DNA of 10,864 nt from Candidatus Hydrogenedentota bacterium (GTDB taxonomy: Bacteria > Hydrogenedentota > Hydrogenedentia > Hydrogenedentales > SCBR16-9). The notes under the pieces were generated by a model. It was not told the DNA's origin, did no database searches, and saw only the letters and a program-made list of their open reading frames with translations. Location of the stretch: positions 1 through 10,864 of the forward strand of contig SKJD01000359.1 in assembly GCA_007116095.1 (NCBI GenBank), written 5' to 3'. Below are positions 8,402 to 10,864 of the stretch, in pieces (position 1 is the first letter of the stretch; each line of letters opens with the position of its first letter). Position numbers and translations under genes: made by a program.

Positions 8402-9061
8402 CTACCCGGCCAGCGTAAGGCGAATTTGATCGAACTCGTAGCGGACGGCGAGTTTGGGGAAGGCGGGCAGGAGGTACTCCTGCAGGATGATGTCAAAAGA
8501 GCTTTCCGGGGGGATTTCCACTTGCCAACGGCGTGTTTCCTGTGGAAGGCTCCGGACAGCGGCTTCTATCACAATTTGAATTTCAGCTTCCTCGCCGAGG
8601 ATTTCCAACGCTGCAACAAAGTCGCTGTCTTCAAAAGTAATGGGCGCTTCAGAAAGCGGGGTGGTTAGTTTGGCGTGAAATTCCGTCGAGAGCTCGGCGC
8701 CGGTGATAATCTCTGGTGTTTTCGCTTCTTCCTCTTCACCGGCTTCCGTATCATTTGGGCCGTACTCGATATGCTCCACGAGCTTTTTGGCGATTTGGAG
8801 CGGCGCGACGCCTCCCCAGACCAGAATTTGAATCTGGGGGCCGGTGGCGCGGAGCACCTTGACATGCTCCAGCACCTGGCCAGTCACCAAGTGTACCGCG
8901 TCATTACCCGGTGCGCCTGAGGGGGCGGCAGCAGGGGCTGTTGCCGAAGAATTTTGCGATGTGGCAGAAAAAGCCGCTTGCTGCGCTGGAGCAGACTGAC
9001 TATGTCCCATTGCGACCAGCCCTACAGCCATCACATAAAGCAATCTATGCCCTTTTTTCAT
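8402..9061 (-). CDS. Small secreted protein with an STN-like C-terminal domain
   Basis: This gene encodes 219 residues. Its N-terminus is a Sec signal peptide (MKKGHRLLYVMAVGLVAMG) with likely cleavage after Ala26, so it should be periplasmic. A low-complexity Ser/Ala/Pro/Gln linker (about 27-54) follows. Next is a short beta-rich block (LVTGQVLEHVKVLRATG to HIEYG, about 57-101) and an acidic linker (EAGEEEEAK). The C-terminal 80 residues (from ITFEDSDFVAALEILGEEA to VRYEFDQIRLTL) resemble the STN (secretin/TonB N-terminal) short domain. STN domains normally sit in front of a secretin or TonB-dependent receptor channel, but none follows here. The protein could be a free-standing adaptor or assembly partner of an outer-membrane machine. 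The start at 9061 was preferred over ATG at 9082 because AAGGAG lies 6 nt before it. A good promoter is directly upstream. Confidence 0.75.
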   Translation of the reverse strand: MKKGHRLLYVMAVGLVAMGHSQSAPAQQAAFSATSQNSSATAPAAAPSGAPGNDAVHLVTGQVLEHVKVLRATGPQIQILVWGGVAPLQIAKKLVEHIEYGPNDTEAGEEEEAKTPEIITGAELSTEFHAKLTTPLSEAPITFEDSDFVAALEILGEEAEIQIVIEAAVRSLPQETRRWQVEIPPESSFDIILQEYLLPAFPKLAVRYEFDQIRLTLAG

Positions 9062-9080
9062 CGCTCTCTCCTTAACAATC

Positions 9081-9110
9081 ATAATATTTTTATCAAGCGG
9101 AGGAAGTCAA
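9081..9110 (-). promoter_or_regulatory. Sigma70-type promoter of the STN-like gene
   Basis: On the minus strand TTGACT (9105-9110, 5/6) lies 18 nt from TATTAT (9081-9086, 5/6). The predicted start near 9074 leaves a short leader of about 13 nt holding only the AAGGAG ribosome-binding site. This supports the start codon at 9061, since the ATG at 9082 would lie upstream of the predicted transcription start. Confidence 0.65.
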
Positions 9111-9266
9111 GATTTTCACAGGATTTTCCACTTATGCGTGGTGTCAGGATCAGGGGACTGAGCAGCGCCTATTACAGCTATAAAGCATGGGAGCGCATCG
9201 GGTAAAGTGTGTAAAACATACAGGCTTGCTGCTTGTCATCAGGGGCGGCTGAAGCGTCGGTAAGGC

Positions 9267-9295
9267 TTGATTCAAGGCCGATCTTAGCGTATAAT
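9267..9295 (+). promoter_or_regulatory. Strong sigma70-type promoter before a structured RNA
   Basis: TTGATT (9267-9272, 4/6) and a perfect TATAAT (9290-9295) are separated by the ideal 17 nt. Transcription should start near 9302. What follows is the hairpin-rich region ending in a terminator, not a protein gene. Confidence 0.75.
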
Positions 9296-9301
9296 ACTGG
9301 A

Positions 9302-9440
9302 ATCGATCAGACAAATATGGTACACACCATAGCGCTTTATTGTGGTTTCAACGGGCAGACCCGGCTTATGCGCCGTTACCAGCAATACGCTTTATCGGGA
9401 CGATCCCTACTTACACGACTGGTAATCGACCCGATTTTTT
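9302..9440 (+). ncRNA. Candidate small RNA (or terminated leader), about 139 nt
   Basis: The segment between the promoter and the T6 tract folds into three consecutive stems by eye. Stem 1 is TATGGT (9316-9321) with ACCATA (9326-9331) and loop ACAC. Stem 2 begins at the next base and is a long imperfect hairpin: 9332-9334 with 9388-9390, 9338-9342 with 9383-9387, 9344-9346 with 9378-9380, and 9350-9354 with 9373-9377. That makes 16 base pairs with small bulges. Stem 3 is the terminator hairpin. A 43-codon frame (ATG at 9317, stop in the bases after the T tract) crosses it but has no ribosome-binding site and starts inside stem 1, so a non-coding role is preferred. It matches no RNA family I recognise. 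Alternatively it is a riboswitch or attenuator for the tRNA-Leu/tig unit 220 nt downstream. Confidence 0.55.
9394..9440 (+). terminator. Intrinsic terminator ending the candidate small RNA
   Basis: ATCGGG (9394-9399) pairs with CCCGAT (9430-9435). After one A-A mismatch, CGAT (9401-9404) pairs with ATCG (9425-9428). Six T residues (9435-9440) follow at once. This is a ten-pair stem with a 20-nt loop and the expected T tract. Confidence 0.75.
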
Positions 9441-9663
9441 ATGTCTGACCATATTACGAATCAACGCCGGACATCGCAAAGCCTGGCGCAGTATTGTTCT
9501 ACTTGCCGGATTGGGCAGGCGTCAACGCAAGTGAAAATCGGCACGCCCGGGTCACGGGATGCCTGTAAACCCAAACCGGATTATTGCGATCCGTTGTCGT
9601 TTGAGGCGCCTGACTAATCGCTGGCGCGGGCTTAAATGGCAGCATCCAAGAAACTACAACGAC
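9441..9663. other. Non-coding stretch before tRNA-Leu with small hairpins
   Basis: No gene is seen. The plus-strand frame running through it into the tRNA is an artefact. Three small inverted repeats are visible: 9512-9517 with 9524-9529; GGCA..CCCG (9540-9549) with CGGG..TGCC (9555-9563); and CGGAT (9577-9581) with ATCCG (9589-9593). A promoter for the tRNA and tig should lie here if the upstream terminator is efficient, but no good match was found. Confidence 0.4.
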
Positions 9664-9748
<85 letters not shown>

Positions 9749-9777: not shown

Positions 9778-10864
9778 ATGAGCGACAAGGACATCAACGA
9801 GACCCCTGAAAACGAATCCACCGCAACCACTGCGACGGATGATAGCGAAAGCACGCCCCAGGTTACGGATGCGCCAGAGGCGGATGCGGAGCATGCCGGG
9901 CATGACCACGACCACGATCATGATCACGATCATGATGAAGCGTATAAGTTCACGGAAGAACCCACCTTCAATGTGGACTATAAAGGGGAATGCCTGTACG
10001 AAGTAGCGGTTTCGGTGCCCGCAATCAATCAAAAAAGTGAGGTTGACAAGCTTTTTGGTGAATTGCAGACCGATGCCGAGCTGCCGGGGTTCCGTAAGGG
10101 AAAGGCCCCTCGCAAGCTTCTCGAAAACAAGATGGGCAAGCATGTGCGCGCCGAAAGCATCGACAAGCTGGTATCGGCTTCGTTTGAGAAGCTGATCAAG
10201 CAGGAAGAACTGCGCCCCATGAGCCCGCCAGATATTGACGGGCTGGAAGATGCCTTGCAGCGCAAGGACGATGATCCCCTGGAGTTCACCATTAAATTTG
10301 AGGTGATTCCCCGCTGTGAATTGGGCGATTATAAAGGTCTGGAACTTGAGCGTCCCGTGCTGGAAATCAGCGATGAGGATGTCGAAAGCGCCATCAATGA
10401 AATGCGTGAACGCCTGGCCACCTTCGAGACCGTGGAAGATGGCGAAGCGGCTGATGGCGACCAGGTCATCATCGACTTCAATGGCCTCATCGATGGGGAA
10501 GAATTTCCGGGCAACAGCGCCGAAAATTATCCGTATGTAATCGGTTCGAAGCGCTTCTTTGAGAGCTTTGAGAATGCCTTGGTTGGCGCGAAGGCCGGTC
10601 AGGAAATCATTGCGGATGTGGACTTCCCAGAAGACTACCCCAGCGAAGATTTGGTCGGCAAGACGGCGAAGTTCACAATTCAGGTACATGAAGTGAAGCG
10701 CAAGACCTTGCCCGAGCTGAACGACGAATTCGCCAAGATGGCCGGCAAGGACAGCCTCGAAGAACTCCGCGAGCAGGTGCGTACCCAGCTTCGCGAGGGT
10801 TTTGCCGAGCAGTCACGCTCCATCATCGAGCAGGAAGCTCTGGACAAGATTGTAGAGAACAGCA
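9778..10864 (+). CDS. tig: Trigger factor, C-terminus cut by window edge
   Basis: The frame is open for 362 codons to the window edge. Trigger factor is the ribosome-bound chaperone and prolyl isomerase that meets nascent chains at the exit tunnel. The ribosome-docking signature GFRKGKAP is at residues 104-111. An FKBP-like domain (about 223-310; GDQVIIDFNG then GEEFPG) and the start of the helical C-terminal chaperone domain (LPELNDEFAKMAG) follow in the usual order. The signature lies near residue 44 in the E. coli protein, so this protein carries an N-terminal extension of about 60 residues. The extension is acidic and Ser/Thr/Glu-rich, and has six consecutive His-Asp pairs at residues 42-53. 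Such a stretch could bind metal ions; it is otherwise probably disordered. The ATG at 9778 has only a weak CGGA upstream, and no later start would keep the whole first domain with a better site. Confidence 0.95.
   Translation, partial: MSDKDINETPENESTATTATDDSESTPQVTDAPEADAEHAGHDHDHDHDHDHDEAYKFTEEPTFNVDYKGECLYEVAVSVPAINQKSEVDKLFGELQTDAELPGFRKGKAPRKLLENKMGKHVRAESIDKLVSASFEKLIKQEELRPMSPPDIDGLEDALQRKDDDPLEFTIKFEVIPRCELGDYKGLELERPVLEISDEDVESAINEMRERLATFETVEDGEAADGDQVIIDFNGLIDGEEFPGNSAENYPYVIGSKRFFESFENALVGAKAGQEIIADVDFPEDYPSEDLVGKTAKFTIQVHEVKRKTLPELNDEFAKMAGKDSLEELREQVRTQLREGFAEQSRSIIEQEALDKIVENS

What the first reader, a model, noticed from the sequence alone, without database searches (positions are those of the whole stretch)
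9267..9440. Unannotated structured small RNA with its own promoter and terminator
A 17-nt-spaced promoter with perfect TATAAT, two adjacent hairpins that use nearly every base from 9316 to 9390, and a ten-pair terminator hairpin with T6 follow one another within 175 bp and enclose no credible gene. That is the full anatomy of a free-standing small RNA of about 139 nt. The long stem tolerates small bulges in the way conserved RNAs often do. I recognise no known family.
Basis: partly seen in the sequence, partly recalled or inferred. Interest (0 to 1): 0.7.

Follow-up and report, generated by a model that had tools for sequence, protein, structure and literature searches.

The report
Leader RNA before a tRNA–chaperone operon
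A promoter and a stop signal for RNA synthesis bracket a short stretch just ahead of a leucine-tRNA and trigger-factor gene pair in an uncultured bacterium, so it is most likely the operon's leader (a control region that can release a small RNA) rather than an independent, conserved RNA gene.

Summary
The promoter (9267-9295) and terminator hairpin with T6 (9394-9440) are real as sequence. In 2000 dinucleotide shuffles of the intergenic region, 4 had such a promoter, 13 such a terminator, none both in order. The other two hairpins fold as described, but the long stem is no better than shuffles (43 of 200).

The genome is an incomplete Hydrogenedentota MAG. No Rfam family matches the element. 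A covariance model found it in 0 of 67 other genomes of the order. No same-family genome is held, so covariation is untested.

Context changes the reading. tRNA-Leu(UAG)-tig follows, a pairing seen in 52 of 58 genomes with tig. Here 9267 is the only strong promoter found before tRNA-Leu. Terminators before tRNA-Leu recur in 10 of 49 regions, own included, against 2.6 expected; for relatives with tRNA-Leu alone the excess is marginal (4 of 25).

Best explanation: the 5' leader of the tRNA-Leu-tig operon, with an attenuator-like terminator that releases a ~139-nt RNA. A free-standing sRNA remains possible. I had no expression data.

The parts
9267..9295 (+). sigma-70-type promoter, TTGATT-17-TATAAT
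   Evidence: 10 of 12; score reached by 5 of 1000 shuffles; only strong promoter in the 550 nt before tRNA-Leu
9302..9440 (+). predicted leader RNA of about 139 nt (start inferred 7 nt after the -10 box)
   Evidence: sequence; fold; promoter and terminator in order in 0 of 2000 shuffles
9316..9331 (+). hairpin 1, 6 bp with a 4-nt loop
   Evidence: 7 of 200 shuffles as good
9332..9390 (+). hairpin 2, long bulged stem
   Evidence: not better than chance (43 of 200 shuffles as good)
9394..9440 (+). intrinsic terminator: 6+4 bp stem, 20-nt loop, T6 at 9435-9440
   Evidence: 0 of 200 shuffles as good
9441..9663 (+). rest of the leader between terminator and tRNA-Leu; no strong promoter found
   Evidence: best scores there 7.5 and 6.0 against 13.6 for the 9267 promoter
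9664..9748 (+). tRNA-Leu, anticodon UAG
9778..10863 (+). tig, trigger factor, runs off the window
   Evidence: relatives in 57 other genomes of the order; the name is my reading of the sequence, no family search was run on it
9317..9448 (+). 43-codon frame through the terminator; probably chance
   Evidence: sequence; no homologue of the 71-aa frame that contains it; only weak tblastn matches in relatives' upstream regions (best E 0.24)

Best explanation
9302-9440 is the first part of the 5' leader of the tRNA-Leu(UAG)-tig operon. Transcription starts near 9302. At the hairpin 9394-9440 part of the polymerases stop and release a leader RNA of about 139 nt; the rest read on through 9441-9663 into tRNA-Leu and tig. 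The terminator thus acts as an attenuator or a fixed-ratio splitter of operon output. Shown by sequence and statistics: promoter, terminator, gene order, and that no other strong sigma-70 promoter was found. Inferred: transcription, partial termination, and any regulation of it.
For: Promoter and terminator in order: 0 of 2000 shuffles. tRNA-Leu(UAG) then tig on one strand in 52 of 58 genomes of the order that have tig, own included; in 3 of the 6 others the contig ends within about 190 nt of the match. In the 21 relatives with tRNA-Gly the best promoter's -10 lies 18-23 nt before it. In 28 other genomes with tRNA-Leu alone the best -10 lies 29-286 nt before the tRNA; ours is at 374 and is the only strong one. 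The neighbouring upstream frame is divergent (8402-9082, minus strand), so I see no other plus-strand transcript for the terminator to end. Sense terminators before tRNA-Leu: 10 of 49 regions, own included; shuffle mean 2.59 and maximum 6 in 100; antisense 1. Of the 24 own tRNA matches only tRNA-Leu(UAG) has such a terminator in the 300 nt upstream (two of the 24 have only 11 and 43 nt held there).
Against: In the tRNA-Leu-only relatives (own excluded) terminators are 4 of 25, mean 1.5, reached in 13 of 300 shuffles, so only marginal, and the promoters of those four score only 7.8, 8.7, 10.9 and 8.2; the stronger part (5 of 23) lies after tRNA-Lys, where it may simply end that unit. The sequence is not conserved. 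No convincing antiterminator was found: only a 4-bp GGGA/UCCC hairpin forms before the 3' arm is made. rRNA-type boxA is absent from this leader (best match 5 mismatches of 13). A terminator within 300 nt upstream was found in only 1 of 14 tRNA-Leu-tig loci outside the phylum. No RNA data.
Confidence: 0.5

Rival explanations
1. A free-standing, lineage-specific small RNA with its own promoter and an efficient terminator; tRNA-Leu-tig uses another promoter in 9441-9663 that does not look like sigma-70.
For: Promoter-terminator anatomy; a 223-nt gap follows before the tRNA; in one relative (L010) a T8 terminator at -59 is followed by that region's best promoter with -10 at -29.
Against: No second strong promoter in 9441-9663; no homologue of the RNA; long stem not significant.
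Confidence: 0.25
2. The operon promoter is real but the hairpin and the leader structure are incidental: weak termination, no regulatory role, a plain long leader that is processed away when the tRNA matures.
For: The 20-nt loop and A.A mismatch make a modest terminator; the leader's long stem is no better than shuffles; leaders align within a genus (59, 60 and 88% identical columns in three pairs) but hardly between genera (5% for four genera of family f4).
Against: None of 200 shuffles of the terminator folds as well; only 13 of 2000 shuffled regions carry one as good.
Confidence: 0.15
3. A leader-peptide attenuator: a ribosome on the 43-codon frame 9317-9448, with CUA CUU and CUG codons in the terminator loop, decides whether the terminator forms, so that supply of tRNA-Leu(UAG) controls its own operon.
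For: The frame is open through the terminator and ends just behind it; tRNA-Leu(UAG), which reads CUN codons (established knowledge), is the next gene.
Against: I see no ribosome-binding site before the ATG; no homologue of the enclosing frame; only weak matches in relatives; by a rough reckoning (my own, no call) a frame of 43 codons stays open by chance about one time in eight.
Confidence: 0.06
4. A relic of the tRNA-Gly-tRNA-Lys unit that stands before tRNA-Leu in many relatives, with its promoter and terminator kept and the tRNAs decayed.
For: tRNA-Gly and/or -Lys stand in this place in 22 other genomes, some with a terminator after tRNA-Lys; neither tRNA-Gly(GCC) nor tRNA-Lys(CUU) was found in the own, 63.7% complete assembly.
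Against: No similarity of 9302-9440 to those regions in nhmmer with filters off, no tRNA found there.
Confidence: 0.04

Closest known systems
UpsM, a 5'-leader-derived sRNA of the dcw cluster in Rhodobacteraceae (PMC5089854; outline and abstract read)
   Same: Long leader of a conserved operon contains a Rho-independent terminator; termination gives a non-coding RNA; reported as limited to one family.
   Different: UpsM is shown by experiment and precedes mraZ/dcw; here the operon begins with a tRNA gene and nothing is shown in vivo. No sequence comparison was made.
Transcription attenuators in general (PMC2965389; search listing and passages seen)
   Same: Terminator between promoter and first gene; signal-sensing parts described there as diverse and rapidly evolving.
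   Different: No recognised sensor, T-box or riboswitch (Rfam); the first downstream gene is a tRNA.
rRNA-operon leaders with boxA antitermination (the name and its role are recalled)
   Same: Leader before a stable-RNA gene.
   Different: boxA-like sites GYTCTTTGA stand upstream of 16S in 7 of 8 loci read, but not in this leader nor, beyond chance, in the other tRNA-Leu leaders.
6S RNA (RF00013)
   Same: Structured RNA of similar length (187 positions against 139).
   Different: The genome has its own 6S at C76:1265-1457 (60.2 bits); this region does not match.

Membership tests
Free-standing intergenic sRNA | Own promoter | tested here: met
   but the same promoter is the only strong one found for the downstream operon
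Free-standing intergenic sRNA | Intrinsic terminator | tested here: met
Free-standing intergenic sRNA | Conservation of the RNA in relatives | tested here: not met
   0 of 67 other genomes of the order (stricter filters that lose some weak matches); nothing credible in 52 upstream loci; none is of the same family
Free-standing intergenic sRNA | Compensatory changes in the stems | not testable with these tools
   no homologue to align
Free-standing intergenic sRNA | Discrete transcript independent of neighbouring genes | not testable with these tools
   no RNA data
5'-leader attenuator / leader-derived RNA | Terminator between the operon's promoter and its first gene | tested here: met
   assigning the promoter to the operon rests on no other strong one being found
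5'-leader attenuator / leader-derived RNA | Alternative antiterminator fold or sensor | tested here: inconclusive
   only a 4-bp competing hairpin in prefixes
5'-leader attenuator / leader-derived RNA | Read-through transcript into tRNA-Leu-tig | not testable with these tools
   no RNA data
Known Rfam family | Score over a curated cut-off | tested here: not met
   (best in the element: UCA1, 11.2 bits, gathering score 80)
boxA-antiterminated leader | boxA motif as in the order's rRNA leaders | tested here: not met
6S RNA | Match to RF00013 | tested here: not met

The most novel reading that the evidence does not exclude
A self-sensing attenuator that couples leucine-tRNA supply to chaperone output: translation of a short leader frame with CUN codons inside the terminator loop (9407-9412, 9419-9421) sets read-through into tRNA-Leu(UAG) and tig, and the terminated product is a leader sRNA; analogous terminators arose repeatedly in Hydrogenedentota.
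Probability: 0.04. Interest if true: 0.75.

Novelty: new member of a known kind. Interest (0 to 1): 0.33.

Why it matters
If the leader terminator works, a tRNA and the ribosome-bound chaperone trigger factor would be tuned together by transcription attenuation in a phylum that, to my knowledge, is known almost only from metagenomes. tRNA-Leu(UAG) was also seen upstream of tig in 14 of 25 loci fetched from outside the phylum (the fetch was a capped pattern search, and some of these loci hold little upstream sequence), so regulation of this pair could be of wider interest; but only 1 of those 14 had a terminator within 300 nt upstream.

Tried and rejected
Rfam: nothing over a gathering score but the tRNA; at E up to 10 two weak matches, taken as chance. 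Loci of 19 relatives plus our own: tRNAs only. 6S: rejected. rRNA-type boxA: rejected. Protein-coding gene: 71-aa frame without homologue (that search needs shared 5-residue words). tRNA-Gly-Lys relic: no similarity in nhmmer; blastn with short words gave only E of 3.1 or worse for 9302-9440. Shared leader words: the terminator tail reached 7 leaders at 14 nt with 3 mismatches, above the largest of 20 shuffles (6); the other words tested, including one shared with L027 and L060, did not exceed the shuffles. Group alignments of leaders: similar within a genus, hardly between genera. Pairing of the leader with the tig start or the divergent gene start: 151 and 147 of 200 shuffles do as well. Pairing of 9307-9313 with 9442-9448 behind the T-run: seen, not explained. 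Phage records: no match. Paper searches: I saw listings with the starts of abstracts, and beyond that only the outline and abstract of PMC5089854 and passages of PMC2965389; nothing I saw describes an RNA of this locus, but the searches cover open-licence PMC papers only.

Full report
Identity of the source. The window is contig C407 of a 2.79-Mb, 63.7% complete genome. The closest named tig relative is a Candidatus Hydrogenedentota MAG (52% identity). The held order contains 68 genomes, none other of the same family.

Observation. The promoter TTGATT-17-TATAAT lies at 9267-9295. The predicted RNA 9302-9440 folds into hairpin 9316-9331, hairpin 9332-9390 and the terminator 9394-9435 with T6. 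None of 200 shuffles of the terminator folds as well; the long stem is matched or beaten by 43 of 200 and hairpin 1 by 7 of 200. The whole 139 nt has z -2.40 (5 of 200), its reverse complement z -1.43 (16 of 200). In 2000 dinucleotide shuffles of 9111-9663, 4 had a promoter as good, 13 a terminator as good and 0 both in order; with looser limits 128, 54 and 0. With the strict limits the whole window has three promoters and three terminators on both strands, and this is the only pair in order at this distance. The generic scans show no clear excess of promoters (8, mean 5.6) or terminators (12, mean 12.0) in the window. The promoter-terminator pair is therefore real as sequence; the long stem is not established.

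Family and conservation. Rfam gives only the tRNA; permissive search gives weak matches only. A DNA search with 9260-9450 found only itself among 100 genomes. A single-sequence covariance model found only itself among the order's 68 genomes (with filters that lose some weak matches) and nothing credible in 52 tig-upstream loci (two matches at E 3.8 and 8.4). nhmmer without filters found nothing for 9302-9440. No close relative is held, so covariation is untested rather than absent. The own genome holds a 6S RNA elsewhere.

Context. The 6 without are L005, L008 and L064, whose contigs end within about 190 nt of the match, and L076, L077 and L090. Among the 52, 29 (own included) have tRNA-Leu alone, 22 have tRNA-Gly and/or tRNA-Lys before it, and 1 has tRNA-Arg. 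In the 21 with tRNA-Gly, the best promoter's -10 lies 18-23 nt before tRNA-Gly; in the 28 other tRNA-Leu-only genomes the best -10 lies 29-286 nt before tRNA-Leu, although 12 of the 29 score below 10 and are uncertain. In our window the only strong promoter is the one at 9267, its -10 374 nt before tRNA-Leu (score 13.6; next 7.5 and 6.0; 5 of 1000 shuffles reach 13.6). The neighbouring frame upstream is divergent. The simplest reading is that 9267 is the operon promoter and 9302-9663 its leader.

Terminators before tRNA-Leu. Scanning the stretch from promoter or last tRNA to tRNA-Leu in 49 of 52 genomes (3 dropped because the stretch was under 40 nt, among them L010, which has a T8 terminator before its promoter) gave 10 with a sense terminator, own included, against a shuffle mean of 2.59 and maximum of 6 in 100, and 1 on the antisense strand. 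Split up: tRNA-Leu-only without our own, 4 of 25 (mean 1.5; 13 of 300 shuffles reach 4), with promoters that score 7.8-10.9; after tRNA-Lys or -Arg, 5 of 23, all five after tRNA-Lys (mean 0.83; 0 of 300). The recurrence is clear overall but marginal for the arrangement most like ours. Outside the phylum 14 of 25 fetched tig loci have tRNA-Leu(UAG) upstream, and 1 of those 14 has a terminator within 300 nt. Of the 24 own tRNA matches, only tRNA-Leu(UAG) has one, two of the 24 having just 11 and 43 nt of upstream sequence held.

Mechanism. I favour an attenuator-like leader: initiation near 9302, partial termination at 9440 giving a ~139-nt RNA, and read-through into tRNA-Leu-tig. Initiation, termination and read-through are inferred. 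Prefix folding shows only a short competing hairpin GGGA/UCCC before the 3' arm of the terminator is made. rRNA leaders of the order carry a clear boxA-like GYTCTTTGA (7 of 8 loci read), but the tRNA-Leu leaders do not beyond chance, and ours has 5 mismatches of 13, so boxA antitermination is not the likely switch. A 43-codon frame crosses the terminator and has CUN codons in its loop, but the frame that contains it has no homologue, I see no ribosome-binding site, and it has a fair chance of being accidental.

Comparison. UpsM (PMC5089854, outline and abstract read) is the closest analogue in working: a leader terminator that yields an sRNA ahead of a conserved operon. No membership is claimed.

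Noticed in passing
9307-9313 and 9442-9448: A perfect 7-bp pairing (UCAGACA/UGUCUGA) encloses all three hairpins and the T-run in the fold of 9302-9470; next to it AATATGGT (9314-9321) is complementary to ACCATATT (9448-9455) behind the T-run. Unexplained; would form only in read-through RNA.
   Followed up: partly
9110-9081 (minus strand) and 8402-9082 (minus strand): Promoter-like TTGACT-18-TATTAT directly before a divergent 226-aa frame that has no Pfam match.
   Followed up: no
L123-L130 (16S leaders of Hydrogenedentota): Conserved boxA-like GYTCTTTGARARTTGAATACG upstream of 16S in 7 of 8 loci read, with a one-base variant in the eighth, L123.
   Followed up: partly
L071 and L082 (genus g39): tRNA-Leu leaders of about 275 nt with no tRNA inside, 59% identical columns between two species: a better place to look for a conserved leader RNA.
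   Followed up: partly
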